Shown here piece by piece: positions 1 through 23,575 of a stretch of 64,000 nt of DNA. Position 1 is the stretch's first letter. Each line of letters opens with the position of its first letter. A model generated the notes under the pieces. It did no database searches. It was given only the letters and a program-made list of their open reading frames with translations, and was not told where the DNA came from. The stretch lies in assembly GCA_003194525.1 (NCBI GenBank), contig NBIV01000133.1:1-64000 (forward strand), written 5' to 3'. Source of the DNA: Gracilariopsis chorda (Eukaryota; Rhodophyta; Florideophyceae; Gracilariales; Gracilariaceae). The position numbers and the translations under genes are program-made.

Positions 1-5
1 AGCTG

Positions 6-1056
6 TTGTCCTATCGTTATTACCGATTGGAAGACTCTTCGGGCACTCGAAGTTCGAGAGACACCGGTCGGGTGAAGGATCTCATACGTCGTATGAATGT
101 GACGATGCTTAAGCAGAAGTTCTCCGGTGAAGATCCGATCCTCGTGTTGGATTTTCTGGCCCGCTTTGTGCAGGAAGCAGACGTACTCGAAATGAGTGAG
201 GCGCAGGCATACGTTGCGTTGCCCTACTTTCTTTCAGGAATGGCTGAAGATCAGTACAACTCGGTCAGGGGTTCGTCCAGGCCTCAGAAGGAGTGTTACG
301 TGCTGGCCCGAGGCTGTACACTACCTGCTCAGGTCGTACGCGACGGGAACTGCATCAGTCAAGCCATCGTGGCGGTTCGCGATACGAAACAGAAGCCTGG
401 TGAAACGGAAACGTCGTATTCAACTCGCTTGAATAAAGCGTTTCATCGTTGTGGAAATGTGTTTACCGCTTTTTGAGCGTTGCTCCATGCTGGTGGATGG
501 TTTAGATCCTGGTATCAGGGCACTGGTGTCCCGCTACAGGGAAGAGAAGCGCAAGGCGACGTATCTGGAACTGGTCCAGTACGCGCAGGCTGAGGGTGAC
601 ACCCTCAGAGCGAGAGACCCGAGGCGTCGGTCGTCGAAGGCTCTCTTCGTCGAGAACGAGGCTTCCTCGGCATCTCTCCCTAACCCGGGACCACCTTCCG
701 GATTTGCGGATAACATCCAGTATCTTGGCAGTCTTGAACAGTCGTTGGCAACCTCGGAACTGCCGTCCACGGTTACACCCCCCGTGGTAGATCCGGCCTT
801 TTACGCAAACCCCGGTCGGGTTCCCCCAGCCCCGCTAGCCTACGCGTCGAGCGCCACACGACACTCCCGCCCGGGATGGTCCAACCCGAAGCAACTAGCA
901 TTCCAACCACAACACCCTCAGCACCGCGGAATGATGTCCCACGCCACCGGAACACGTTCAGCCCCGCTGATTTGCTACATTTGTTACCTTGAGGTCATAC
1001 TGCGTCGCAGTGTACCCTCCCCATTCGCGAGATGTGGAAGATCGTGGGAATTATGA
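6..1056 (+). pseudogene. gag: gag of element 1 (partial, frameshifted)
   Basis: Retrotransposon capsid-type Gag. The segment from about 15 to 470 aligns well with Gag of element 2 (shared pattern of YRYYRL, DPIL-FLRF and SEAQA-VALP-FL). The frame opens at the window edge, so the N-terminus is missing. A stop at 474-476 ends the first frame, and the reading continues in another frame from about 451 to 1056 through a Pro/Ser-rich tail. A decayed CCHC zinc knuckle (CYIC start) lies near 972-985. The protein would package element RNA. Pseudogene. Confidence 0.8.
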
Positions 1057-1411
1057 GAATCTCCACCGGAGCATAAGGCTCGTGTCCGAGTAATTCGTAT
1101 GAAGACGCAAGGCTGCGGTCCACAATGCTCAAGCTCGAGAAGCCTCGAAAACCGCGAACGGTAACAACCCTAACTTTCGGAACGGCTCAGCCGCACCCAG
1201 CGGTCGATTCGGTCCGAAAAACTAATCTTGGAGTCCCCCACGGGAGGGGGTGTCTTCAAGCCGAAGTTGAAGACGCCTGAGGCGCCACCGCTTCGCACCC
1301 TGCCAAAATCCTTACGAGGAAACTGGCTCAAGAAGACGTGAGCTCGGACCATTAGTGGCTCTGCGTCGTCCGTGGATACGGTCCACGTAACCTCCGCATC
1401 CCGGATGAGTT

Positions 1412-2192
1412 TTGGTAATGGCCAAGAGGAACTATAAAGTTTATAGTGACCTCGGTCTCTCTAACCAGTTCATGGTTCGTCAGTTATCTGTCCTGGATAC
1501 AGGTGCCGCTCCGAACCTGATCAATATCGGGATTATTCACCCGCCATGCGGAAATGCATTCGCATTGGTCCAAGTCTGGATCTGGCGACGCTAATAACAA
1601 CCTGCTCCAGACTCTTGGAACAATTCCTCTGGTACTCAGACTAGGCGCCTAGGTGGTGAAGTTGGGACTTCATCGTATGCGACTCTCTTGCTGCACCGGT
1701 CATCCTCGTGTTGTGATTTCTGTGACCGCTTCGTGGAAGCCATCCGCCCTCGCTCCAGATCCGTGGAATTGGCCAACGGTTCGACCATCCGATTGTACGG
1801 AAGCCCTTGCGACACGCCTCCCGTAAACGGGTACCTTTACCTGCTGCTCAGGAAGCGTCCAATGTGGAATCGAGCATCTTACGAAGATTCGCGTCGCGGA
1901 ACCAGTTTCGATCCCGAAGGAATCTCAGGTGTGGGTCTCAGTAACATCCAAACACCACGGGTTGCAGGTTGTTTCAACCGCTCCCTCGCTCTACGAACAG
2001 CGTCGTCTCGCATTAGCAAATGGCATCGTATTCGTCGAGCCGGACAAACCCTTTAAGGTTCTCGTTGCTAACCTCGGAACTACCACTCAGTGGTTGGTTA
2101 AAAACCAGGTCCTGGGCAACATGCTTCCGCATCCGTTGGCTATCTTCCTACAAAGATTCCGATATCCGACGTTCTCGGAATACAAGACCTAA
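1412..2192 (+). pseudogene. Protease and linker region of element 1 pol
   Basis: The frame from 1412 carries the aspartic protease active-site triad context (LDTGA) of retropepsins. It breaks at 1594 and resumes in another frame near 1690, where CDFCDRFVEAIRP matches the protease C-terminus of element 2 (CDYCDRFVEAIRP). A third frame (1929-2192) matches the protease-RT linker of element 2, including KNQVLG. At least two frameshifts make this non-functional. It would normally cleave the Gag-Pol polyprotein. Confidence 0.8.
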
Positions 2193-2441
2193 GGAGGGGA
2201 GGAGGTCCCGTTCGTTCCGTTGGATCCCGCCGGGAAAGTTCAGATTCGACTGTCGAAGAAGCTCAGAAGAGCACGAATTCAGCATCGGCAGATACTGCGT
2301 TAGACCCAGAACAGGCTTTGGATAAGTTGGACCTGGATCACATTAATGAATCTCATCGTGAGAAGTTTCGTGACATGCTCAGGGACTTTACCGCCATGTG
2401 GGACGGTTCCCTGGGGACGATAGGGGTAACCGAACATCGGA

Positions 2442-3991
2442 TTGATTTGTTGCCGGATACACGGCCTATTGCACAGCACCGTATCGGGCAGGCCTAAAGC
2501 AAGGGGGGGAAGAGAAATCTCAGGTGGAGAAGATGCTGCGAGCTGGAGTTATCGAAGCAGCACAATCCCCTTGGGCTTCTCCTGTTGTCCTTGTTCCGAA
2601 AGCCGATGGATCATGGCGTTTCTGTGTGGATTACCGCCGCTGAATGCGGTTACTGTCCAGGACGTCTATCCGATTCCACGAATGGACGAGTACATTGACT
2701 CCCTGGGGAGCGCCACGGTGTTTCACTACCCTTGATGCCAATTCGGGATACTGGCAGGTCCCTATTAGGAAAGAAGATCGTGATAAGACCGCGTTTGTGT
2801 GCCATCAAGGACTATATCGCTTTAAGCGAATGCCTTTTGGACTAACGAATGCCCCAGCTACATTCCAACGGGCAATCGATATCCTCTTGGCGAGGTTCAA
2901 ATGGACCAGCTGTCTGGTATACTTGGACGACATTATAGTGTTCTCCAATAACTTGGACGATCACCTGTCCCATGTCCGGGAAGTCTTGACAGTGCTCCGC
3001 AACGCGGGCATCACCCTGAAGCTGGGAAAGTGTGGGTTCTGCGCCGATTCGGTAAAATATCTGGGGCACATCATCCGCCCCGGACAGCTTTTCAATCGAT
3101 GAAGCAAGAGTGAAATCACTTCGAGAGGCGAAACATCCGACTAATCAAACGGAGCTTCGATCCTTCCTAGGACTTTGCAATGTATATCGCCGATTCGTCC
3201 CGAACTTCGCCGACTTGTCAGCACCGCTTAACGCACTCCTCCGGAAAGGACAACCCACCGAACTGGACGTTTTTGACGAGGCTGAGTCGTCAGCATTCTC
3301 GTCTCTTGTCGACGCTGTAACGTCCCCGCCAGTTCTGGCCTTACCGCACCCGGACTTACCCTTCGAAGTGGATACTGACTCAAGTGCCCACCAGGTGGGT
3401 TGTGCGTTGTTTCAAGTCACGGAAGAAGGAGAAAGACATCCGATCGGATATTGGTCACGTTCGTTGAACGTTCACGAGCGCAACTACTCGGTGTCCGAGA
3501 AGGAGTGTCTTGCTGTTGTTTGGGCGTTGGCGACGCTTCGCCCATACCTTATGGGTAACCATTTCAAGGTTCACACCGATCACTCGGCTCTCCGTTGGCT
3601 ACTCGAAATTCGAGAACCGTCGGGCCGCCTCATGCGTTGGCGTCTCCGACTCTCGGAATTTACATTTGATGTCCTCTACAAGAAGGGATCCCTGAATACT
3701 CAGGCTGACGCCCTATCGCGCTTAGGAACATCAGCGGAAACCGAACCGGTCGATGATCTGGAAATACCATGTTTCATGGCACAATCCCCGGAGGGAACGG
3801 AAGAAGACGACCCAGACGTGAATGGGGATGACATCTGTGACGATATTCTAGCTGCAAACCCTACGGATCCTCCGGATGACCAGGTTGTTCCCATATCCTC
3901 TGAGGAAATGATCCGTGAACAACAGCAGGATCCTTTCTGTGCCAGATTCGTGCCCGTCTTAACGGGGGCGCACAGATACCCTTTGCGGTGA
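2442..3991 (+). pseudogene. pol: Reverse transcriptase and RNase H of element 1
   Basis: RT core: the FCVDYR motif near 2620, FTTLDANSGYWQ near 2730-2765 with the first catalytic Asp present, the FGLTNAPATFQ block, and YLDD at about 2920-2931 holding the catalytic Asp pair. RNase H follows from 3110 with DTDSS, SEKECLAVVWAL and HTDHSALRWLL. Active-site residues are preserved, but the frame shifts near 2640-2730 and 3100, and a stop ends RNase H at 3991. The product would copy element RNA into DNA. Better preserved in catalytic residues than element 2. Confidence 0.85.
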
Positions 3992-4079
3992 ACGATCGAG
4001 GCTACCTAGTCAGGTTGCTGACACGGGCCCCACAGATCGTTGTACCTCACACGCTGCAGCAGCGCGTCTTGCATCTATC

Positions 4080-5636
4080 GCATTACGCGAAGTTGGGTGC
4101 ACATCCGGCGGGAGGAAACTATACCTGACCCTTCGCAGGGATTTCTATTGGCCTGATATGGCATTTGACTGCTATGCAGTTCGCCGCTCGTGCGTGGAAT
4201 GTGCGAAGAATAATGTAAAACTTCGGAAGTACTCGAAGAAGTTAACACTATTCCCGGCACGGGGCGCCACTCGAATATGTCGCTATTGATATCTTGGGCG
4301 AGCTTGTCAAAACCAAACGTGGTTACAAGTATCTTCTCGTCATTGCTGACCGCTTCTCAAAGTTGGTGAGAACAGTACCGCTTAAACAGATTACCGCGGA
4401 CGTGGTTGCGCGTGCGTTCGTAACCCACTGGGTCTTTACTTACGGCCCGCCGGTACATCTACTCTCCGACAACGGATCTCAATTTACCTCAAAGTTCTTT
4501 CAGGACGTATGTAGAATCTTGGGAATCAAGAATATGTTTACTACCACCTACCACCCGCAGTGTAACGGACAAGTGGAACGATTTAATCGTACTATGCTCA
4601 ACGCACTGCGCGCGTATGTCGCGGATCACCCCATGGAATGGGACTTGTACACGGACGCTATTACGTACGCGTATAACACCCAGGTACACTGGGTCACGAC
4701 CCTCGCTCCATTTGAGCTGGTCCTGTCTCGGATTCCGCCACCCATGGCTATTGAAGCGCAACCGAACGTCTCGGGGTACCCTTCGACAAGGTTTATATCG
4801 AGATTCCTGGAAGGAATGGTTGAAGAACATGGTCCCTACCGCCCGAAAAGGCTATGGGAAAAGCCCAGGAGGCATAAAAACAGAACTTCGACGCGAAGAT
4901 TCGTACCCCGATACCCCAGGTCTCGGAAGGGGATTCTGTCTTCCTGCGAAAGGAATATTATAATCCCGAAAAGGAGAAGCGCCACAAGTTGTCACCGATA
5001 GTGAATGGACCCTATCGGGTGGTTTCCGTCGCCGACGACACAGTCGTACTGGACATCGATAACCAGTTCGAATGCGTCTCACGCAACCGCGTAGCCCACG
5101 CGCCTGCGCCCCCTGAGGGCTCATCACCGCTCGTGACAATCCCGGAGGATGACCTCGTAACTCCGCCAACGGATAATCTGGTTCCGTCCCGCCCACCCGT
5201 CTTACCGCACCCGGAACGGGGACTCTCGGATCTTCCGATTGCCGATCAACCGGTTGAGCGCGCCGCGCGTATCGTGAAACGCACGCTTGACCCCAAACGC
5301 CTAACCGTTACTCCGCCCGCGGAGGTCCTTCAGCCTGAACCCACCCCCCTCTCACCTAAGGAGGGGGAGGGACGGGAATCGATCGCGCCATCGCGGAAGG
5401 AAGCTCCGGCGTCGGACGGTGTCCCGTTTCATACGGCATCGTCGGATGAGCACCCCCGGAGCAGGGAGGAGTTGAACGCATCTCGAAGCGAGAAGGCCTC
5501 CTCCGCGGACCCGGATGCACTCCTGTCGAGCGAGTCACTGGGTAGCGAAGGAGGAAGTAGTGAACCGGACTCGGTGTGGTCACTAATGTGGCGAATGATA
5601 TCTCCGAGCACGGAGCACATACAACCTCGGTCATAA
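4080..5636 (+). pseudogene. Integrase of element 1 with C-terminal extension
   Basis: DDE integrase core in the frame 4294-5001: first Asp near 4287-4292 (context AIDILGEL once read across the break), second Asp in LLSDNGSQF (about 4460), Glu in NGQVERFNR (about 4565-4590). The Zn-binding HHCC region lies upstream at 4080-4250 in a different frame. A Pro/Ser-rich C-terminal tail continues in another frame to 5636. Several frameshifts separate these parts, so the integrase is inactive. Confidence 0.8.
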
Positions 5637-6188: not shown

Positions 6189-6423
6189 ATGACGGGTCAG
6201 GAGCCGGCTACGTACGACCAGGAGTTTGTCGTTGACCACATCGTGGATCATGTTCTGGACTCCAAAGGAGTGTGGTTTTTACCAAATCCGATGGTACGGA
6301 TACCCCCCGGAAGAGGACACATGGGAGCCCATTCAGCACCTTCCTCGTTCCAAGGTGATAACCTACCACCGCCGGACGCGGTTCCCACTCCCATCCACTT
6401 TGGACATGGCCCAGGTTGGGTAG
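6189..6423 (+). pseudogene. Chromodomain at the end of element 1 pol
   Basis: Split over two frames: EFVVDHIVDHVLDS (frame of 6189) then YQIRWYGYPPEEDTWEP (frame of 6226), ending at a stop at 6421-6423. The Trp and Tyr of RWYGY and an aromatic residue at the start (Phe for Tyr) correspond to the methyl-lysine aromatic cage of HP1-type chromodomains. Chromovirus integrases use such domains to target chromatin. The end of the domain (MAQVG) matches the end of the element 2 copy (DARVG), which fixes the end of pol. Confidence 0.8.
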
Positions 6424-6758: not shown

Positions 6759-8600
6759 TTAGGATGAGCCGCTCGTTGGCGGTTGGTAGTTCGCAGACGC
6801 GAAAGCCAATAACTCGCTCACGCTGGTGAGGTTGGAAGGCGCAACCACTCCAATGGACTGGAGATGAGCCCTGAGGGCAACGGCCTGAGGGTCCACGGGG
6901 ACTGGAGATGCGGTAGACGGAGAAGCAGCCGCACTGGCGGCCATATTCCAGCCATCTGGAGCAGCCACATGCTGGCCGGATCCGTCGAGATCGTTGACCA
7001 TCGCCGTTACCGGGGCTACGGCCTCCTCCACCTCATCGGGGTCGTCATCCACCATTGGATCATCCTCGTAGGAACCGTGCCAGTCATCGGAAAACATGAA
7101 CCCAACCGGGTGGCCTCGCGGAACGGAGCGTGGTACATCGCGTAACGCTAGCGCGTGAGCCCGTGAAGTCACGGATACCTCCCAAGGGTCATAGAGGACG
7201 AAGTTGCCAGCGTTTGGATTTCTCCGGCATGGAGAGCGATCATGCCTGGAAGGCTCACCGTCAGGGACGTTGGAGACTGGGACTGTATCCCAGTTAACCA
7301 TATCGATGGTGTTCAGAAGGCACTGAAGCTCATCCACATTGGCTTCGGATCCCAGAGGGATATAGAGATCCAATCGGCGGATAACCTGGCGTAGGTGAGG
7401 AGGAATGTACCACAGACGGTTCTTGTCGTACACCTCCCAGAGGAGAAATGCGGCAACGCGAGCAGCCCATTCGGCGAGGAAGAGAGTCCAGTAACCGGAA
7501 TCCGGATTGTTGATTAATCGTGAACCGATGTAGCTGAGGCACGGAGGCATCTCCGCAAAGCATCCCCTCGGGACTTCGAACCTGCTCCACCAATGGGGAA
7601 GAGGTGCATACCGGCCGCGCATCGCGGATGGACGGAGCCTCTCGACCTCCAGATTTTGGTATGGTACCAGGAACCCGAAGCGGGAGCGCGCCTTTCGCTC
7701 AAACCGGAGTCGGTCGAAGAAGGATCCGCGATGATTCGGACGACGAAGATATCGGAACTCTGCACGCAGAATTGGGCGCCTCCAGAGGAGCATCCCGGCT
7801 TCTATTGGAGTGGACCGGAACGGTGTAGATGGCTGGTAGGCAGCAAGGTTCTCGCAGTATGAGACTTCACCGTAGGTACGGTACCGCGAGAGGTCAAAGC
7901 TGTATTCCGTTGGTATCAGCTCATCCGGATAACTCGCGCGGGCGAGACGGTCGTAGGAGACCTTGGCCATCCCGGCACGGGCGTCATTCAGCGTCTCGAA
8001 ACCATATCTGGTGCGCTTCCGTGCGAGGAACTGTGGCTCTACCGCGATACACGTCCTCCAGTCGAAAGAGTCGACCATATCCCGGCCTAGTCCCCCTGGG
8101 AGCTCGCCCTCCTCCACATAGGAGTCGATGAGGTCCGAATCGGAAACCCATGTGGGGTGGAACCAGGGCGCACGCGAAAAGAGGAGAGCGTCTTCCCGGG
8201 GATTGCGGGCCCAAAGTGTCGATGGTGACACCCAGCCGGCGGCGGTCGCAGTGATCGGTATCGCTTGAGCGGAATTCCAGGCGGCGATACTCGCGGCATC
8301 CGAGGCATCCAAGGTTGGAACATGAGACGATCCTCCAGGCAGAGGCAAGGAGAGGAACCCAGAGGTTGGGTGACGAACCCACGACCCCGGCGTCACGAAG
8401 GAAGGTTGTCCGCTCGCGGAAGTCCCCTGCGGGGCGCCCGCAGGCGGGTTGTTCGAAAACGGAGTGTTGGTCATAGTAGAGAGGGGCACAGATTCTGTTG
8501 AAGAAGGTACTGAGGGTTGATCAGTTGTAACCGTGTTGGTACGGGGGACCGGTATCTCGGCGATTCCCTTGTCGGGACTATTTATACCCTCGCGCCTCAT
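6759..8600 (-). CDS. Antisense ORF of chromovirus element 1, unknown family
   Basis: An open frame of 613 codons from ATG at 8600, on the strand opposite to gag-pol and convergent with pol. I do not recognise the family. The N-terminal 120 residues are Ser/Thr/Pro-rich. A conserved core of about 370 residues contains RAPWF, RAEFRYLRR, FGFLVPYQNLE, SYIGSRLINNPDSGYW and LYDPWE. It is followed by an acidic stretch (DDDPDEVEEA) and an Ala/Pro-rich tail. No signal peptide, clear membrane span or catalytic motif is visible. The core aligns, at roughly 40 % identity by eye, with the ORF at 10745-12208, which has the same position and orientation in element 2. An alternative start is the ATG at 8474, about 105 bp downstream of a TATAAATA motif. 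This is the only long unbroken frame in the element. Confidence 0.75.
   Translation of the reverse strand: MRREGINSPDKGIAEIPVPRTNTVTTDQPSVPSSTESVPLSTMTNTPFSNNPPAGAPQGTSASGQPSFVTPGSWVRHPTSGFLSLPLPGGSSHVPTLDASDAASIAAWNSAQAIPITATAAGWVSPSTLWARNPREDALLFSRAPWFHPTWVSDSDLIDSYVEEGELPGGLGRDMVDSFDWRTCIAVEPQFLARKRTRYGFETLNDARAGMAKVSYDRLARASYPDELIPTEYSFDLSRYRTYGEVSYCENLAAYQPSTPFRSTPIEAGMLLWRRPILRAEFRYLRRPNHRGSFFDRLRFERKARSRFGFLVPYQNLEVERLRPSAMRGRYAPLPHWWSRFEVPRGCFAEMPPCLSYIGSRLINNPDSGYWTLFLAEWAARVAAFLLWEVYDKNRLWYIPPHLRQVIRRLDLYIPLGSEANVDELQCLLNTIDMVNWDTVPVSNVPDGEPSRHDRSPCRRNPNAGNFVLYDPWEVSVTSRAHALALRDVPRSVPRGHPVGFMFSDDWHGSYEDDPMVDDDPDEVEEAVAPVTAMVNDLDGSGQHVAAPDGWNMAASAAASPSTASPVPVDPQAVALRAHLQSIGVVAPSNLTSVSELLAFASANYQPPTSGSS
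8579..8586 (-). promoter_or_regulatory. TATA-like motif near the antisense ORF start
   Basis: TATAAATA on the minus strand, followed by an open frame with ATG at 8472-8474 about 105 bp further on. It lies just inside the longest version of the antisense ORF (ATG 8600). If it is a real TATA box, translation would start at 8474. Sequence match only; no support from transcription data. Confidence 0.3.
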
Positions 8601-8804
8601 CTCCTCACGCCTATACTCACGTTCGTTTTCGGCCCTTAAGGAGGGGGATGTGTAGTGCAATACATTCCCGCGTACGGGCGATGGTGAAACTCATATCTGA
8701 GGTGTACTCGGTGCGAGCGATGAAGCGGGATGCATGAATTTTAGCCCCCGTTTACCGGGCTAATTGGCGGTCGGGTTACCCAGGGTGGTTATGGGAACAT
8801 TCAT

Positions 8805-9563
8805 ATTTTGTGGTACCTGCCTGGCAAAGGTGGTGGACACGTGGCTACAGCCCCGGCCAGGAGGCCCAAAACGGCTACTTGTTTTAGTATAGTTTAGGGG
8901 TTAATTTTACTTAGGCTAGTGCACTACCTACTGTACTGCACTGAGCTAGTACTTGAGCGTGGGCCGCACGGCGGCGAGCTCACCAAGAAAAGTAACAAGA
9001 GTTCGGCTCTGACTCTATTCGCCATGCGAAGTGTCTAACTCCTCGCGGAGGTACACCGCTTGCCCGATAGTTTCACCCGACTCGCACCACCGAGGAGACC
9101 GTGCTCGTCGTACCCAGTGGGTTGTGACCACTCGTGGTATTCGTTGTTGTCGTGTGACCGCCCGTACAGGCCCTATCTCCGCCCCAGTTTTGGGTATTGA
9201 TATTACCGACGTGTGTCGTGAGACCGTGAGACCATCTTTTCCCCTCATATCCCCTAACCGCCGCGCGGTGCGTGTTCGTGTGTGTGTATCGGCACCCCCC
9301 TCCGGGGTCTGTTCCCGCTTTCCGCACGCCCCCGTCGGGTGGTCCCTCTCCCTCTTTTGTTCCCCTGTTCGCAGGCTACTTCCGGACCAGCCGTGGTTCC
9401 GACCCGTTCTAACCCCTAAACCTCCGAGGTACATCCAGGCTCCCGACGGAGTTACACCCGTCATACAGGACACGGAGGGCTCTACCCAGCTGGGCCTACC
9501 TCTCCAAGAGAGCAAGGCTTCGAGCTGCCTTGGGTGCCTTTCCCACACCGGGATTGCACCACA
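8805..9563 (+). repeat. LTR A (3' LTR of element 1)
   Basis: Related throughout to LTR B (9947-10665, inverted) and LTR C (21280-22026). Shared landmarks in order: ACACGTGG near 8839, TAATTTTACTTA near 8903, a GTGGGCCGCACGGCGG-type GC hairpin near 8960, CGGCTCTGACTCTATTCGCC near 9004, and a terminal GATTGCACCACA ending at 9563. The end is well defined. The start is approximate (8805-8880) because only diverged copies are available. No PBS follows, as expected for a 3' LTR. Confidence 0.65.
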
Positions 9564-9841
9564 CTTGAAGCCGCGACAGCGGGAGCAGGCCGGGGTGCCT
9601 GGGGCACTGCCGCAACAGCCGGAGTCGATGCTGCATTCCCCTGCGGGGGTGATAACGAGGGCAAAAGGAGGTTCCGGGGTTCCCGGTCAGGGGTATCATT
9701 CCGCGACGAAGCGGCGCCAGCACGGCTGGAACTTGTCCGTATAGGGATACGGGGTACGAACCGAACTTCGGATGTGTCCGCGTTGTCGCGGGAGCGACTA
9801 CGCGTAACCACTGGCTCCGCATCGGAGGGATTTCTCGACAT
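9564..9841 (-). pseudogene. Truncated gag start of a third chromovirus
   Basis: Minus-strand ORF from ATG at 9841 (MSRNPSDAEPVVTRSRSR start), downstream of LTR B and its primer binding site. In position and composition it matches the Gag leader of element 2 (MHTRSRSSSGTPDAAG start), Ser/Arg- then Ala/Pro-rich. It is cut off where LTR A ends (about 9563); residues read beyond that point come from LTR A. So LTR B acts as the 5' LTR of an element of which only some 280 bp of gag remain. Confidence 0.55.
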
Positions 9842-9925
9842 GAGGAAATACCGTTACGACGGGAAACGATCACGGAACTTCCGGTGAATGAAAACAAACC
9901 TCGTAAGAGGGAAAACAAAAACCGA

Positions 9926-9943
9926 TTCTAGGTCAGGAGACCA
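9926..9943 (-). other. Primer binding site next to LTR B
   Basis: On the minus strand, three bases after the LTR B end (ACCACA), is TGGTCTCCTGACCTAGAA. It begins with TGG as expected for pairing with a tRNA 3' CCA. The same sequence with one change lies beside the element 2 5' LTR at 20225-20242. The priming tRNA was not identified. Confidence 0.6.
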
Positions 9944-9946
9944 CTT

Positions 9947-10665
9947 TGTGGTGCAATGCCCCAAAGGAGAAAAACACCGAAAGACGTCCGGGATCTTCCT
10001 CTCACGAGGTGAACCCAGTTGAGTAGAGCCCTCCCAGAGGTGTCACGGCGAAGCCAGTTTGTAAGACCAGGGACACCTGTCGCGACTCGCGCAGGGAGGT
10101 GAAGGCGAAGAATCGGTATCCGCGTGAGCGGGGTGTGATCCTCAGTAGAGGTATGTTTCCACGTAAGTGGGGGTGTGTGAGCGGATGCGCACACGAGGGC
10201 CGCGGATAGCGGGAGGTGCTACCCTAAAAAGGGGAAAGAGTAAGGACGAAGTGGGTCGCGAGAGCGACGAGCAGATACGGCAATGCCAGTGGACAGGACT
10301 CCCTATACAGGGCGAAACACCAATATGATTGGAACAATTAGTACTCCCAATGATGGGTCTCCTTTAGATGTGCAAGGGGGGTGAACTTCCGTACACTACG
10401 GTGCTTCCCTCCAAGGAGGAGTTGAGAACACGCGGAGGCGGTAAAGCTCAGAGCCAATTCTCCAGGTTGGGGTCCCTTGTTAGGGAAGGTTTACTGGTGC
10501 GACGGCAGTGCGCCGTCGCACTAAGTACTAGCTTCCCAGAAATGGGTGTGAAAATAATAAGTAAAATTAACTAAAATACTCCACATTCCGTGGCAACATC
10601 CACTACTGTGGCCAACCGCCAATTGACCCAAAACCGTGTCCCACGTGTCCATATCCACCATAGTG
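9947..10665 (-). repeat. LTR B, minus orientation
   Basis: Reverse-oriented relative of LTR A and LTR C: GACACGTGG near 10642, TTAATTTTACTTATT near 10565, a GCGACGGCGCACTGCCGTCGC hairpin near 10500-10520, TTGGCTCTGAGC near 10455, and the terminal GCATTGCACCACA at 9947-9959. It follows the antisense ORF of element 2 (3' LTR position) but is itself followed by a PBS and a gag start (5' LTR position). The outer boundary is approximate (10585-10665). Confidence 0.65.
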
Positions 10666-10744
10666 GGGCGTAGTTCATATACACACTACACAACCGATAA
10701 TATCGGGAAAACGATCAAGTACCCGGAATCCCTCCCTGAGGGCG

Positions 10745-12208
10745 TTGCACATCACTGATGTCAGCACCTTTCCGTCCTACGCAGAACTGGTCGGACGCAA
10801 TCCGTTGCAGCATCTAGCTTCATACTCACGCGCACCATGGTTCTTCCCGGCGGCTGTCCGCAATGAAGGTCTCATCGCCACATATGTTGTCGCCGGTCGA
10901 CTTCCTGACTGGTTGCCGTGGTTTGCGCTGTACAAGAGCGATTGGCTGAGCCACTGTGCTCTTCCAGATGTTGTGATCAGTCGCTACCAAAACGAGTCCA
11001 TGGCGGAGGCCCGCAGACAGTTTGTACGATTAATGTACTTGCCGATGCGCCGCGTCATTGGGACGGTTCCCCTCAATGAAGATTGGAACCTCGACACCTG
11101 GGTCGCTCGGACCAACGGCGAAGCTTACGCATACGTCGAGAACCTTGCGAACCTAGACGTCCGTCAGTGGCGTGGTGGCCGTGGTGGTGTGTCCAATGCA
11201 GCTCTCTGCTTCGACAATCCTCAACTTCGAGCAGAGTTCCACTACTTGCGTAAGCGTGACATCCACTATTGGGAGTACCCACGATGGGAAAGGCAGACCA
11301 AGTCAAGACTTGGGTACCTCGTGCCCTATCAAATGCTTGAGATTGACCGCGTTCGGTATCTCTCGCGCATTGGGCGCTACATCCCCGTTCCAAGACATTG
11401 GCATGAAATCGAGTGTCCTCGTAGCTGTGCAGTGGAGCTGCTTCTCGCGCTGACCTACGTGGGGTCTCTGTTAACAAACGATCCGTTTTCGGGGTATTGG
11501 GTAGTGGTCTACACTGAGTTCATAGCCAAAATGGCAGTGTGTGTCCTCTGAGATGTGTACGACACCTACCGCTTGTGGTACATGACCCCGATGGCCCGCC
11601 GTTACGCACGAGAACTCGATCTCTCCTTCATCCTAGGCTCCCGAGCCAATCAAGAGGAATTTCGTCGCCTTGTCGACATCATCGACCAAGTGAACTGGAG
11701 TCTCATCCCTGTGGAACAGAGCTCAAGAGGAAATCCCCGCGTTCACCATTCTCCTGGGAGGAACGGCCCTGGTGGTGATTTCATCTGGTATGATCCCTGG
11801 ACGAGCCAGCACATAGATGGCAGACAAGCCAAGCAATTACGGGAAAATCCGCGAGTCATGCCGCAGACACAGCCTACTGGTTACCTATTCGAACCGATGC
11901 CGATGAACTCTGACGCTCTCGTCGACGAATACCAGGAGATAGCCAACGATGTGGCGATGGGGGAACCCGAAGAGGAGGTGGATGCACCAAACCGTGGTAC
12001 TGACGTGGAGCATATTCCTGCTGCGATGCAGGAGTCTGCTCCAGCACCTGCTCCACTGCTAACCATACACGGTGAGGCTGAGCTCCATTTTCTGAGGTGT
12101 CTCCTCTTAGATGCGGGTGTTTCGCCGGGTCAGATCCCGAATAGCCGCCAACAAATGGTTAAGCTCCTTTGCGATCACATGGGCAATATGCCCAATACGA
12201 ATGCGTAA
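10745..12208 (+). pseudogene. Antisense ORF of chromovirus element 2, one nonsense codon
   Basis: Homologue of the 6759-8600 protein, again opposite to gag-pol and convergent with pol. Shared blocks: RAPWF, RAEFHYLRK, LGYLVPYQMLE, TYVGSLLTNDPFSGYW and WYDPW, then an acidic segment and a tail. The frame is interrupted once, by TGA at 11549-11551 where the other copy has Trp (TGG); it continues in the same frame on both sides for 488 codons in total. No ATG is in frame upstream (the open frame begins at 10664), and about 110 N-terminal residues present in the other copy are absent. Function unknown. Confidence 0.7.
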
Positions 12209-12785: not shown

Positions 12786-13942
12786 TTAACCGACGCGAGC
12801 GTCATCAATGTTGTCCGGGATAGCTAAATTAGCCCGCTTGCAGTACGACAGTACATGAGGCCGTGGTAAATTGCCAATTGGTTCCAAAGTATCACTACTA
12901 GGCGCGTATCCGTACCACCGTACCTTACACAGCAAACAATTGTCTGCATCCCGTCCGTGGAAAACGATACGTTCGATAACGTATTCTCTCTCGCTGTCGA
13001 GTTCCTCAGCTGGGACTATGTCCCGATCAGTAGATGATGGTTCACGCCCTTGATATGCGTGTCGCTGAGTTCCCTCAACATCGATGTCATTTGATGACTT
13101 CTCATCCGCATCGACGGTATTCCCTTCCGAAATCCCCGCCGATGGGCTTCTAATCGCCAGTCTCCTGGATTCTTGTTTCCTTTCTGGTTTGGCCGGTTTT
13201 CCCAATCCAACATTCGGTACAACCGATTCAGTCGGCGAAGACGTGACTTCCTTCGTCACTGTACGCCTGAGAATAGCCCACGAAGGCCTCTCTAGATCCG
13301 GGCTTACGATAGCCGGTGTAATGGGTTGTTCCCGTTCTTGTCCAACCTCCCCTACAGTCGGGTCGGCCGAGACAAGTTTCTGCTGTGGTCGGGCCACTTG
13401 AACCTCATTTCTTCCTTTCCTCTCCCTGTCTTCATGAGACTTTACGGTTTCCACATGTGCAGTTGCACCTTCTTTCACGTCACGCCAGTCTAGTGCTCTA
13501 CCCGTGGCGTTGTCGCCTTGGGCTTCAACATTGCCGTTGCTCGACTCACTTCTTTGCTCGGAGCGTTCAGTCGCGGTAGTGGGAGGCGGTTCCGCTACGG
13601 CGTGCGTCGCCTTACTGTCTCCACGGGGCTTCCCAAGTCAAGAATATCGTCCACGGACGCACTGTACGGTGGCAATGCGCCATTGCGCTCCGTAAAACGG
13701 TCCTTTTGGCCCGCATCGCCAGGTGGCGCTTCTTTCGAAATTATTTTGCCCTGTGGTGGGACATCAGTGGGTTCCTGCCCTGTGAGTGGCTGGATTGGCG
13801 TCAACGTCTGCGAATCTGCACGAGATGCCACCGCTTGCTGCGCGTCAGCCTCTGCACTGGGTGCACTCACCACACGATCAAGTGATATGCGCTCCACTTC
13901 TTTTCCTCTCCTAATGACAACTGTGTCCTGGTTGAACTCCAC
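12786..13942 (-). pseudogene. Integrase C-terminal region and chromodomain, element 2
   Basis: Two adjoining minus frames (13942-13595 and 13478-12786). The first resembles the post-integrase GPY-like and linker region. The second is a charged linker ending in a chromodomain: EREYVIERIV, then CKVRWYGYAPSSDTLEP, ending DARVG. The three aromatic-cage positions (Tyr, Trp, Tyr) are present, while the later conserved Trp of the usual TWEP motif is Leu. A frame break near 13480-13595 separates the parts. Confidence 0.75.
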
Positions 13943-13946
13943 AACT

Positions 13947-14723
13947 TCATGCGGTCCAGTCGCGATTGGGGCTAGCTTGTGACGGCGTCGTCTGTCTCTT
14001 TTTTTCCTCGGGCGTTTTCCCGTCAGTTCTCTCTAGTCTCACGAAGACGTGTCCTCCAACCCGCAAATCCGGAATAGAAGGTCTAATCGTAGCGTCATAA
14101 TTGCGTTTAAACCGTTCTTGGGCCTTTCCCATTTGCTTTGCGGCCTGCACAGCGCGTGCGCGCAGCTCGTTCCTCCGGCGTAGGTGGAATTGAGCCGGGG
14201 TCGGCATGTCGTCGAGTTTCTCTTCTTTCGAGCTAACCTCGATCGGTAGAGCCGGTGGCCGGCGTGACAGTACCAGCTCGAATGGGGCATATTTCGTCGT
14301 CGAATGCACATGCGTATTGTACGCATAACAGAGCGTGTCCGTACACAGATCCCAATCCTTTGGATGATCAGCGATGTAGTGCCGAAGAGCGGCTAGTATA
14401 GTACGGTTGTACCGTTCCACCTGGCAGTTGCACTGCGGATGATATGTCGTGGTAAACATGTTCTTAACACCCGGTATCCTGCATACATCCTGAAAGAAGC
14501 GAGCAACAAATTGCTTTCCGTTATCTAAGAGCAGATTATCCGGGGGTCCGTAGTAGTAAACCCAATGGTGGATAAAAGCTCGTGCGATCACGGGAGCGGT
14601 AATCCGTTTGAGCGGAACAGTTTCCACCAGCTTCGAGAAGCGATCGGTGATTACCAAGAGGTACCTGTTCCCTCGCTTAGAGCGAATTAATTCTCCAAGT
14701 ATATCTATGCTCACATACTCCAA
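13947..14723 (-). pseudogene. Integrase catalytic core, element 2
   Basis: Uninterrupted 258-codon segment with all three DDE residues: Asp in SIDILGEL, Asp in LLLDNGKQF, and Glu in CQVERYNR (Asn-Cys-Gln replaces the usual Asn-Gly-Gln). It aligns along its length with the integrase of element 1 (VFTTTYHPQCN, FELVLSR). The N-terminal HHCC part lies in the preceding frame (around 14750-14870). The core looks catalytically plausible, but the polyprotein it belongs to is broken. Confidence 0.85.
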
Positions 14724-14800: not shown

Positions 14801-16318
14801 CTAAAGCTTCGTATCTCCTGGGTGACCAGATAGCTGCGAATAATGCGCCAGATGCAGTACCCTGCTCTTGAGAGAGTGTGGTATCACGATCTGCACATAG
14901 GCTTCGACAGTTCGAACTAATATTCCGCGATCGTCGAGACGAAAAGGTAGCACCTCCCCCCCGTTAAGACGTGAGCGGATTGCAGCACAAAAAGCGTCAG
15001 TGAGCTGTTCACGGAGTAGCTCCTCGAGCGTAATTCGTTCAAGCTGCCGGTCAGCATCAGTATCCGTTGTTTGCGCTATCAGCACATCCATAACGTAATC
15101 GTCGTCATCCCAAGTTTCCACTTTCATTTCTAGAAATACCAGCTCCTCCATTGTAAGACAAGGGATGTCATCATCAATTTCCAATTGGGTCTCGCCCAGA
15201 GTTTCGAGCCGCGAAAGCGCGTCAGCATGGACGTTATAGGTTCCTTTCTTGTACTTGACTGCGAAGTCGAACTCAGAAAGACGTAGCCCCCAGCGCATTA
15301 AGCGTCCCGAGGGGTCAGAAATTGACATAAGCCATCTTAAGCAAGAGTGATCCGTGTTGACGGTGAAGTGTACCTCCTCTAGGTAAGGCCTAAGGGTCGT
15401 AAGAGCCCATACTACAGCTAAACATTCCTTTTCGGAAACGGAGTTGTTCTTCTCTGCCTGATGCAGTGAACGAGACCAGTATCCAATGGGATAACGCTTG
15501 CCGTCTTCGTACGTTTGAAAAAGGGCACATCCTACCTGGTAGTCACTAGAGTCTGTGTCGACGGAAAAGGGTAGATCCGGTTTTGGAAGTTGTAGCACTG
15601 GGGCTGAGGTCAGCATATGCTTCAGTGTTTCGAAAGCGTCCGTCTCGGCTTCCCCGAATTCCTTCAACTGTGAGTATTCTCCTTTCTTCAATAAAGCATT
15701 CAAAGGCGCAGCGACATGCCAATAGCATGGAACAAATCTCCTGTAAACGTTACAGAGTCCTAAAAAGGCACGTAGTTGCGTCTGTGTCCGCGGAGGTTTT
15801 GCTTCATGTATTGCAGCGGTCTGCATCTCCACGATTTCCAAAGTTCCCGGCTTGATCCGGTGTCCAAGGTACTTCACCTGGTTCGTGAACCATTCGCACT
15901 TCTTAATCTTCAATGAAATGCCAGCATTATCCAACTGCTTGAGGATTGCCTCGAAATCAGAGAAATGGTCTTCCATATCATGACTGTAGACATTGATGTC
16001 GTCCAAGCAGACTAAACAAGTCTTCCACTTATAATGTGAGAGTATGATATCGATAGCGCGCTGAAACATTGCCGGAGCATTGGTCAAGCCAAAAGGCATT
16101 CGATTGAAGCGATATAGTCCTGCGTGACAAACAAACGCCGTCTTGCCGCGATCTTTTGGTGCAACGGGCACTTGCCAGTAACCCCAATTTGCGTAAAGCG
16201 TAGTAAAGACGTTGGCTTCTCCAAGTCTATAGATGCATTCATCCATGCGTGGCAATGGATAAGTATCCCTCAGTGTTACTGCGTTCAGCTTCCTGTAGTC
16301 AACACAGAAGCGTAACTA
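14801..16318 (-). pseudogene. pol: Reverse transcriptase and RNase H, element 2 (catalytic Asp lost)
   Basis: Long frame with RT palm motifs and RNase H (DTDSSDYQVGCALFQ, SEKECLAVVWAL, NTDHSCLRWL), then the integrase zinc region (HLAHYSQLSGH). Compared with element 1, the first RT catalytic Asp in the TTLDAN block is Tyr (codon TAC, about 16195-16200), and the following Ser is Trp. The second motif reads CLDD, so its Asp pair is kept. A TAG at 16316-16318 lies in the [11 protein letters not shown] block. This RT cannot be active. Confidence 0.85.
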
Positions 16319-17676: not shown

Positions 17677-19782
17677 CTAGTTTCCCGATTGAGCAGGCTT
17701 ACGAACCACCACGGGTGCGTTCCCCATCTTCAAGTCTCCTCGCGTTTGTTCCACCTTCTGGACCCCCGATTGGCGTCTGGTGTCTGCTGTAACGCAAGCC
17801 TTGGCCTGCCAGTACGAGTTAGACGGTACACGGGCACGTTCCGCTTCCGATAGGGCTTCATAATTCAGGATGACCTGCGCGAGCTCTCTGACGGACAGCG
17901 TGCACTCTGCCGGCAGATGGTGTCTACCATAACAGCTATAACAAATCAGGCCTTCCCTGTTCAGTCGCCCCTGGTAGTTGCCTACCAGGCGATTGTTTAC
18001 CCAACCGGGTCTCTTCTCAGTTATTCCTCCTGGGGGCGGGACGACCGCATTTCTTTGGTACGGATACCTGCGTGGTTCCATAGCCATCAGTTCAGAATCC
18101 TGAAGAGACTCAGTTGAAGGCAACTCCGTGGTCGGTATCGACCTAACTGGTTCATCCAGATACTGCAAAGCATCATGCTCCGCATGGCTTTCCTGTGGCG
18201 TCTGCGTCGAAAAGTGCGAATCTTCTGGCGACTCCAGATACATGGCTTTGCCCCTCTTCGCAGCACGCTGCAACCTTACATCTTTAGCGGGGTACGTTCC
18301 AAGACGTCGGGTTGTAGAGATCACTCCACTGCGGGCTCGGACCGCGTCTCCTTCCGCCTGCGCGAATTGAGAAAGCTCCAGGAAGCGGATTCGGGGATGC
18401 CGTTCCCGATGGCTGGCAACAAGTGACTTGATGGTCCTATCCAATCCATCGACGTAAAGCGTTATCTTGTCGTCCATACTGTGAACGTTTCCACAACGAA
18501 TCGCTGCCTTATTCAGCCTTGAGCTGTACTCCACCTCTGTCTCCGTATACTTCTGGGTAACTTCCCTGAGGTCCAACATTGCTCCACGAATGGCGTTCGA
18601 AGTAGCATAACTACGTAGCAAACACTGAACAGCCTCAGACCAACAGGTGACTCCACCTTCATCCGCATTCAGCGAGCCACTGGCAGCACGATACTGCTCC
18701 AGTGCGACCCTCCGCAGAAATTGTGGTAAAGCCACGAACGCCTGCGCTTCGCTAACCTTGAGAGTGTTTGCCTCTATGACAAACCGGCTCAAAAACTCAA
18801 AGATGAGTATGGGATCCGTCCCATCAAAGGTGAGTTCAGCCAAACCAACTTTCAATCGGCGAATGTGATCTCTCACTTTCCCCGTCTCGCGACCTGATCG
18901 CTTCGTCTTACGAACTCGTAATCGATAGTACCGATAATCGGTAATCTTCCGATAAAGCGGATTCGTACACGAAAGGCGCTTCATTCCGTAGTGGGAAGGG
19001 CCCTTCTTAAGACACGAAACTGAGTTACCACTCTTCTTCCTTCTCGGGCGGCGAGATTCTTCGTCGTCGCTCGAGCTACTGTCGTCCTCTGACGAATCGT
19101 CCTCAGAACTCTCTGAAGAGGAGTTATCATCATCGGAGTCCTCCGAATTCTCATCAGAATCATCAAGCCTTATGGACTTCCACTTCTTTGACCGCTTTAA
19201 AGACTGCTTCTTCCGTTCTTTCCTTTTCGAAAAGGCTTCAGCTGTACCGACTGCTTGCGCTTCAGAACGTTCTGGTTGCACAGGTGTGTTCACCACGTTC
19301 TCAAGTCGTTCGAGGCGAGGATTAACGCGTGAGAGGACCTCCTCAACAGTGACCGGTATTGCTGGTGGGGTTCCCAGGACGTTTCCTTGCCCTTCCATCA
19401 GACGATTGACGTCTTCGCGAATTGTCCGAACGACATCAGCCATCTGATTATCATCTCTTCTGTTCTTCAGAGCAGTCTGCTCACGTCTTAACGTCTCCAA
19501 TGACGATTCTAACAGGTTTACCTCACTTTGCATCTCTTCCAGACGGAACTTCTGCGACGCAGATTCCGCACAGAGCCACTGTATTTCAGCACGTAGAACG
19601 TCGGTTGACGAGGAAGACTCACGGGGGGCGGGTGCTAGTACCTCAGAAGGTGTTCCAGCCCCTCCTGTCGACCTCGACTTCACTGCTTGCTAATATAAGC
19701 GGTTGCCCGCCTCTGTAGACGTGGCTAAACGACTACCAGCAGCATCAGGCGTTCCTGAACTCGACCGGCTTCTTGTATGCAT
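17677..19782 (-). pseudogene. gag: gag, element 2 (one amber stop)
   Basis: From ATG at 19782 (MHTRSRSSSG start) the frame is open for 702 codons except for one TAG about 30 codons in (near 19693). Regions: a coiled-coil-like segment (LRREQTALKNRRDD), an acidic Ser/Asp tract (residues about 190-235), a capsid-like domain shared with element 1 (ITDYRYYRL to the end of the SEAQAFVALP block and beyond), and a CCHC zinc knuckle CYSCYGRHHLPAEC near 17900-17945. It would form the virus-like particle. The 702-codon length suggests nearly full length. Confidence 0.85.
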
Positions 19783-22849: not shown

Positions 22850-23575
22850 CATGATTGGCACCTGCGGTATAACCACCTCAGACCACGCACCCTTCAAGAA
22901 ATGGCCAAGTGCGGCTTACTGAACCTTCCGCAAATATTACAGCGAACCCCCCCTCCAATCTCTTGCAGAGGGTGCATCCACGGCAAGCGCATGAAAATGG
23001 CCCATAAGAAGACCGATCACCAATACGACCAAGAACACACAGTATCGTCTGACATCGCCGGCCCCATCAACCCTCAATCTACTCACGGCAACAAGTACTT
23101 CGTAGTCTTTCTGGAAACCACGACAAGATTCCTTTTCACTTTCTGTGCGGCAACCAGAGACCAGTTATACGCCTTTACTGCGCAAGTACTCAACCTTATG
23201 CGCAATATGTTCGGCCTCTCCCCACTTCTCATCACCACAGACAATGCAGGCGAGTATCGTTCTCACACTTTCCAACGCATTCTTGACGGCCATGGCACGC
23301 AGCCCTCAACATCGACACCATACAGTCCCCAGGAAAACTCGCTCGCCGAGAGGGTAATTGGCACCCTTTCACGCATCGTACGGGCCAGCCTCTTGCACTC
23401 GAGACTGCCAAGCGCCTACTGGGAAGACGCACGTCGTGATGCTACTTTCAAATACAACCGCACCCTCCACAGCACTACACAAAAAAATCCCCTACACCGA
23501 ATGGCACTCAAAACCTCCGACCGTGTCGAACATGCTCATATTTGGACAGCTCGGCAGCATCCCAGTGGTAACTGA
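22850..23575 (+). pseudogene. copia integrase
   Basis: Pre-integrase zinc region (WHLRYNHLRPRTLQEM, then CRGCIHGK), followed by the DDE core: Asp in VSSDIAGPI, Asp in ITTDNAGEY, Glu in ENSLAERVIGT. The frame ends at 23575, where the continuing sequence shifts into the next frame. The catalytic triad is intact, but the polyprotein is broken. Confidence 0.8.

What the first reader, a model, noticed from the sequence alone, without database searches (positions are those of the whole stretch)
6759..12208. Two diverged chromoviruses both carry a related antisense ORF between pol and the 3' LTR
The ORFs at 6759-8600 (minus) and 10745-12208 (plus) encode clearly related proteins of no family I recognise. 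Each lies downstream of the chromodomain, opposite to gag-pol, in a different element. They share about 40 % identity by eye over some 370 residues, while the two elements' pol genes are also well diverged. Reading frame has thus been kept while sequence drifted, in elements whose pol frames are shattered, which suggests a real protein inherited with the element. Antisense additional ORFs are known in some plant gypsy elements (e.g. maize Grande, rice RIRE2); I know of no description with this core. A role in regulating sense expression, in silencing defence, or in transposition is speculation.
Basis: partly seen in the sequence, partly recalled or inferred. Interest (0 to 1): 0.88.

Follow-up and report, generated by a model that had tools for sequence, protein, structure and literature searches.

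The report
Antisense extra gene in algal retrotransposons
Hundreds of retrotransposon copies in this genome, which looks red-algal, carry relatives of one unknown protein gene; wherever its orientation could be read it faces the opposite way to the element's other genes, and evolution has kept the protein while the elements diverged.

Summary
Confirmed and extended. The minus-strand ORF (likely ATG at 8474, 571 aa, ending 6759) and the plus-strand frame 10745-12208 (one in-frame TGA, N-terminus lost) encode related proteins. Each is tail to tail with a gypsy pol that ends in a chromodomain. Relatives occupy at least 321 loci in the same genome (capped lists). 176 of 321 have a listed integrase on the opposite strand 1.65-3.2 kb past the match, none has one there on the same strand, and 142 cannot be judged. 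All 32 distinct loci whose DNA I hold are antisense. Between subfamilies dN/dS is about 0.09-0.40 (dS near saturation). The protein's tree follows the integrase and RT trees except for one group, where an exchange of the 3' part is likely. The named relatives are red algae (Gracilariaceae). Searches of Pfam, NCBIfam, PDB, fold libraries, phages, plasmids, GTDB and IMG/VR gave no convincing match. [quoted passage not shown] the chromovirus/red-algal setting and this protein family appear new within the searches that ran. Most likely it is an accessory protein, probably nuclear, made from an antisense transcript starting in or near the 3' LTR; that function is inferred.

The parts
6759..8474 (-). 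aORF1, 571 aa from the likely ATG (frame open from 8660)
   Evidence: 72 relatives
10745..11551 (+). aORF2, N-terminal half of the core, ends at an in-frame TGA (11549-11551); N-tail missing
11555..12208 (+). aORF2, C-terminal half, same register
6..476 (+). gag-like ORF of element 1 (named by position and by its relatives beside pol; no Pfam scan was made of it)
2644..3991 (+). element 1 RT and RNase H, in two frames
   Evidence: Pfam RVT_1, RT_RNaseH
4294..5001 (+). element 1 integrase
   Evidence: Pfam rve
6271..6423 (+). element 1 chromodomain and the end of pol
   Evidence: Pfam Chromo, 32.0 bits against a cut-off of 25.1
8651..9563 (+). element 1 3' LTR (913 bp)
   Evidence: 5' LTR copies begin at 8649-8651; copies diverge just past 9563
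9564..10750 (-). LTR-like stretch that abuts aORF2 (3' LTR of element 2 or of another element)
   Evidence: 92% to L038 6955-8158; ends
12786..13478 (-). element 2 linker and chromodomain
   Evidence: Pfam Chromo E 0.004, below the cut-off; similar to chromodomain regions of relatives
13947..14723 (-). element 2 integrase
   Evidence: Pfam rve
14801..16255 (-). element 2 RT and RNase H
   Evidence: Pfam RVT_1, RT_RNaseH
18478..18936 (-). gag-like stretch of element 2
   Evidence: 46% to the gag-like ORF of element 1

Best explanation
The ORF is a genuine accessory gene of a chromovirus group that, by its relatives, belongs to red algae (class aORF-3R: between pol and 3' LTR, antisense). SHOWN: many copies; antisense, tail-to-tail layout in every locus read; protein-level purifying selection between subfamilies; mostly common history with pol, with one likely exchange of the 3' part (linker, chromodomain, aORF). 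INFERRED: a separate antisense mRNA from a promoter in or just inside the 3' LTR (the likely ATG is 177 bp from it); a protein with a flexible N-tail, a helical core of about 380 residues, an acidic linker and a C-terminal helix-loop-helix that acts in trans, most likely in the nucleus, on the element's own expression, silencing or integration. The analogues are Grande gene23 and HTLV HBZ (from papers seen) and VANC of Arabidopsis MULEs (recalled).
For: Copy number. Orientation: 176 of 321 loci with a listed integrase antisense 3' of the ORF, 0 same-strand there; 20 of 20 fetched 10-kb loci, three more subfamilies, seven family-1 copies. Selection. One open frame of six in each of four subfamilies. 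Trees. Precedent for a nuclear protein from its own antisense promoter: PMC7264820. A conserved basic stretch, E-R-x-x-R, lies in the core.
Against: No transcript or protein was seen. No recognised nucleic-acid-binding domain or fold. Within-subfamily pN/pS is 0.42 and 0.68, and close pairs reach 0.59-0.91, so current selection on individual copies is weak or absent. Stops in the match are more frequent than in integrase (27 of 150; 16 of 150). A hydrophobic segment passes the usual membrane cut-off (1.6, recalled) in 3 of 10 proteins. Nuclear location is by analogy only.
Confidence: 0.5

Rival explanations
1. The protein is a structural or replication accessory: it joins the particle or pre-integration complex (scaffold, chaperone, nuclear entry) and does not regulate expression.
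For: Selection of the same order as on integrase and common history with pol; the reviewers suggest roles in retrotransposition for such ORFs (PMC7264820).
Against: A separate antisense transcript is an odd way to supply a particle component in step with gag-pol (argument, not a test); no similarity to capsid, nucleocapsid or other known folds.
Confidence: 0.27
2. The antisense RNA is the functional product (dsRNA, self-limitation or transcriptional interference) and the ORF is incidental.
For: The tail-to-tail layout would let transcripts overlap; dsRNA effects are discussed in PMC7264820.
Against: Differences pile up in third codon positions and dN/dS is 0.09-0.40 between subfamilies; the other five frames are full of stops.
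Confidence: 0.06
3. A captured host gene carried as cargo, or a protein serving the host, without a role for the element.
For: Cargo capture is known in LTR elements (PMC7264820).
Against: No host-type relative found outside the family; long-term conservation in several element subfamilies. The protein searches score only candidates that share short words, and three later ones failed.
Confidence: 0.09
4. The ORF is the gene of a separate mobile element that once inserted antisense and is now carried along.
For: Antisense orientation and no similarity to gag-pol.
Against: No similarity to a known transposase; same position in the loci read; long-term selection. Even if true of the origin, it would not explain the retention.
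Confidence: 0.05

Closest known systems
Maize Grande gene23 and rice RIRE2 antisense ORFs (aORF-3R)
   Same: Between pol and 3' LTR, antisense, present in most copies; gene23 has its own promoter and a nuclear protein (PMC7264820, parts 1 and 2 of 3 read)
   Different: Land-plant elements; I had none of their sequences to compare. Here the elements carry a chromodomain and the named relatives are red algae
Retand lineage with TRP28 (PF04195) antisense ORFs
   Same: Antisense ORFs between pol and 3' LTR throughout a lineage (PMC11963269, passages)
   Different: Described as non-chromovirus and as known only in flowering plants; no Pfam match to TRP28 at E up to 10 in 16 family members
Boty of Botrytis cinerea
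   Same: Antisense ORF between pol and 3' LTR outside plants (named in PMC7264820)
   Different: Fungal; sequence not compared here
HTLV-1 HBZ
   Same: Antisense gene read from a promoter in the 3' LTR, nuclear protein (PMC7264820 and PMC11963269)
   Different: Retrovirus; HBZ is a bZIP protein (recalled); no similarity known
Orchid gypsy elements with an m6A demethylase domain (PMC9289625, search listing only)
   Same: Extra protein domain acquired by a Ty3/gypsy element
   Different: A known enzyme domain; the present protein has no recognised domain

Membership tests
Chromovirus (Ty3/gypsy with chromodomain) | RT, RNase H and integrase of LTR-element type | tested here: met
   Pfam RVT_1, RT_RNaseH and rve in both window elements
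Chromovirus (Ty3/gypsy with chromodomain) | Chromodomain at the C-terminus of pol | tested here: met
   Above the Pfam cut-off in element 1, L042 and L043; just below in L041 (24.6 against 25.1 bits) and weak in element 2 (E 0.004)
Chromovirus (Ty3/gypsy with chromodomain) | RT phylogeny within the chromovirus branch | not tested
   No reference RT set was aligned
aORF-3R class | ORF between pol and 3' LTR, antisense to gag-pol | tested here: met
   the LTR boundary itself was fixed only for family 1
aORF-3R class | In most copies, conserved about as well as other element proteins | tested here: met
   lists capped, so the share of copies with the ORF is not known. The core evolves faster than integrase (34-45% against 64-74% identity for W1 against the other subfamilies)
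aORF-3R class | Antisense transcript | not testable with these tools
   No expression data at hand
Retand / TRP28 | Antisense protein with PF04195 | tested here: not met
   No match at E up to 10
Env-like aORF | Sense orientation after pol | tested here: not met
Env-like aORF | Membrane-spanning segments | tested here: inconclusive
   Best 19-residue hydropathy 0.94-1.99; 3 of 10 proteins above 1.6 (cut-off recalled), with charged residues inside the segment

The most novel reading that the evidence does not exclude
An old chromovirus lineage of red algae independently evolved an antisense-coded, trans-acting regulator or anti-silencing protein with a fold of its own. It is kept by selection across subfamilies that together number hundreds of copies, and is exchanged between elements as one 3' cassette with the chromodomain, so that targeting module and accessory protein travel together.
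Probability: 0.33. Interest if true: 0.78.

Novelty: new variant of a known kind. Interest (0 to 1): 0.62.

Why it matters
The review read here says the functions of antisense ORFs in LTR elements are unknown. This case adds a host group far from land plants and fungi, several subfamilies with many open copies, and direct evidence that the protein, not only an antisense RNA, is selected. Unrelated proteins in the same slot (TRP28 in Retand; this family here, as far as Pfam can tell) would suggest that the position itself, antisense beside the 3' LTR, is useful to such elements. It also tells annotators that a 'hypothetical protein' such as BWQ96_10156 of Gracilariopsis chorda (P0010) belongs to a family that sits in retrotransposons.
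Full report
WHAT IS THERE. Element 1 fills the start of the window on plus and ends at 9563. Element 2 lies on minus, from a gag-like stretch at 18.5-18.9 kb down to its aORF at 10745-12208. Pfam recognises RT, RNase H and integrase in both. The chromodomain passes the cut-off in element 1 (6271-6423, 32.0 bits), L042 and L043, is just below it in L041, and is weak in element 2 (E 0.004). aORF1 is open on minus from 8660 to 6759; relatives point to the ATG at 8474. aORF2 has one in-frame stop and has lost its N-terminal tail. The two proteins are 35% (268 residues) and 43% (115 residues) identical.

LTR OF ELEMENT 1. Seven other copies (L002-L008) match the window up to 9563-9567 at 98.5-98.9%; L005 does so from 5431 on, plus a shorter piece. 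Six of them and the window have seven different flanks directly after the terminal CA (L004 was not in that list). With 8642-9563 as query, 35 of 40 rows start at base 1 and five at base 8-10; the five are read as 5' LTRs, starting at 8649-8651. The pairs on C375 and C4 give elements of about 11.45 kb. So the 3' LTR is 8651-9563 and the likely ATG is 177 bp from it. LTR boundaries of the other subfamilies were not fixed.

COPY NUMBER AND ORIENTATION. The genome is 91.3 Mb in 1081 contigs. Capped searches list 72 near-full relatives of aORF1, 143 of the first half of aORF2 and 150 of a third subfamily. Merged, these are 321 loci. Four integrase searches (and the first 70 rows of 37) merge to 409 loci. 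176 of 321 have an integrase on the opposite strand 1.65-3.2 kb past the matched part of the ORF, 0 on the same strand on that side, and seven integrases lie on the 5' side (five same, two opposite strand). 142 of 321 have none listed within 6 kb, which the caps do not let me interpret. Of the loci whose DNA I hold, all 32 distinct ones are antisense to a chromovirus: the two of the window; L021-L040, rows 2-21 of the list (20 of 20); L041-L043, one each of three more subfamilies; and L002-L008, by flank identity that includes the chromodomain. In five loci measured (W1, W2, L028, L032, L043) the stops of pol and aORF face each other at about 0.2-0.6 kb.

SELECTION. Between subfamilies differences pile up in third positions (51, 39, 125 for aORF2 against L026). 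Where dS exceeds 1 and is finite, dN/dS is 0.085-0.40; for element 2 against L026 it is 0.085 for the aORF and 0.133 for integrase. Many pairs are saturated, so the values are rough. Against element 2, L025 at dS 0.24 gives 0.46, and the nearest copies L022 and L023 give 0.59 and 0.77; the L028 group gives 0.72-0.91 within itself. Within young subfamilies pooled pN/pS is 0.42 (8 copies; dN below dS in 18 of 28 pairs) and 0.68 (5 copies; 10 of 10 pairs). That fits changes after insertion, when selection has ended. In four subfamilies the coding frame has no stop and the others 8-30 each. Stops inside the match: 27 of 150 in one aORF list, 16 of 150 in the integrase list of that subfamily.

HISTORY. 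Quick trees (SH-aLRT only) of aORF core and integrase for 17 loci, and of RT for 14, share the main splits. The exception is L028-L031: with element 2, L021, L022 and L025 by integrase (95) and RT (99), but outside L026-L027 by aORF (100). Integrase of element 2 against this group has dS 0.40-0.46 while the aORF is saturated. At DNA level L022 and both L028 and L030 are about 90% identical up to about 140 bp past the integrase core and near 67% in the aORF, whereas L022 and L026 are 74% and 73%. An exchange of linker, chromodomain and aORF explains this best. The linker is variable in all comparisons, so the exact breakpoint is not fixed, and a burst of change in the 3' part is not excluded.

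THE PROTEIN. Pfam, NCBIfam and PDB sequences give nothing significant. Among 5.8 billion proteins two searches found 12 different relatives, P0004-P0015; only candidates sharing most words were scored, and three later searches timed out. Three of the 12 are named, from Agarophyton chilense (two) and Gracilariopsis chorda (one), both Gracilariaceae. Invariant in an alignment of eight are P-x-L-R-A-E-F-R and E-R-x-x-R-x-x-x-G-x-x-x-P-Y-Q. The models (pTM 0.46 for 571 aa with 15 sequences, 0.67 for the core with 12) are mostly helical, with a low-confidence N-tail and linker and a C-terminal helix-loop-helix. No fold match was found. The species of the window was not identified; red-algal origin is inferred from the relatives.

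WHAT IT DOES. Shown: a selected, element-borne, antisense protein gene. Inferred: its own transcript from the LTR side, and a trans-acting role that is most likely nuclear. The inference rests on precedent (Grande gene23 with its own promoter and nuclear protein; antisense promoter in the HTLV 3' LTR; PMC7264820, parts 1 and 2 of 3), not on any domain. A role in particles or pre-integration complexes is the main rival.

NOVELTY. The class is known in plants and in fungal Boty. I saw no paper on such an ORF in red algae; the searches that ran were (open-licence papers only), and four more failed (95, 112, 116, 117). A 2012 survey reports no retrotransposon chromodomain in three red algae (PMC3350952, passages), while another paper's abstract mentions chromoviruses in red algae (PMC3605345, passages). 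Hence: new variant of a known kind, with a protein family that I could not place. On re-checking, the membrane test went from negative to inconclusive, so the rival of a structural role was raised slightly.

Noticed in passing
window 9564-10750; L038 6955-8158: An LTR-like stretch 92% identical to one beside a gag-like stretch in L038 lies between element 1 and aORF2. In L038 the LTR runs on past the point where element 1 begins in the window, so element 1 appears to be nested in it.
   Followed up: partly
L041 2-2620; L043 2076-4469: About 600-680 residues rich in Pro, Ser and Thr separate the integrase core from the chromodomain in these pols.
   Followed up: no
G000 C15:283917-302540; C3:99040-117392: Integrase matches in tandem at exact spacing, four at 6,017 bp and three at about 8,812 bp, as if whole elements were repeated head to tail.
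   Followed up: no
window 1-5250: Gag-pol of element 1 is broken into several frames while its aORF is intact; the same integrase in many other copies lies in open frames of up to 1490 aa or more.
   Followed up: partly
window 23222-23497: A weak integrase-like match (27%, E 4e-5) on plus, perhaps another, distant gypsy element.
   Followed up: no
L023 6245-7911: The integrase match is split by about 0.9 kb, as if something had inserted in it.
   Followed up: no
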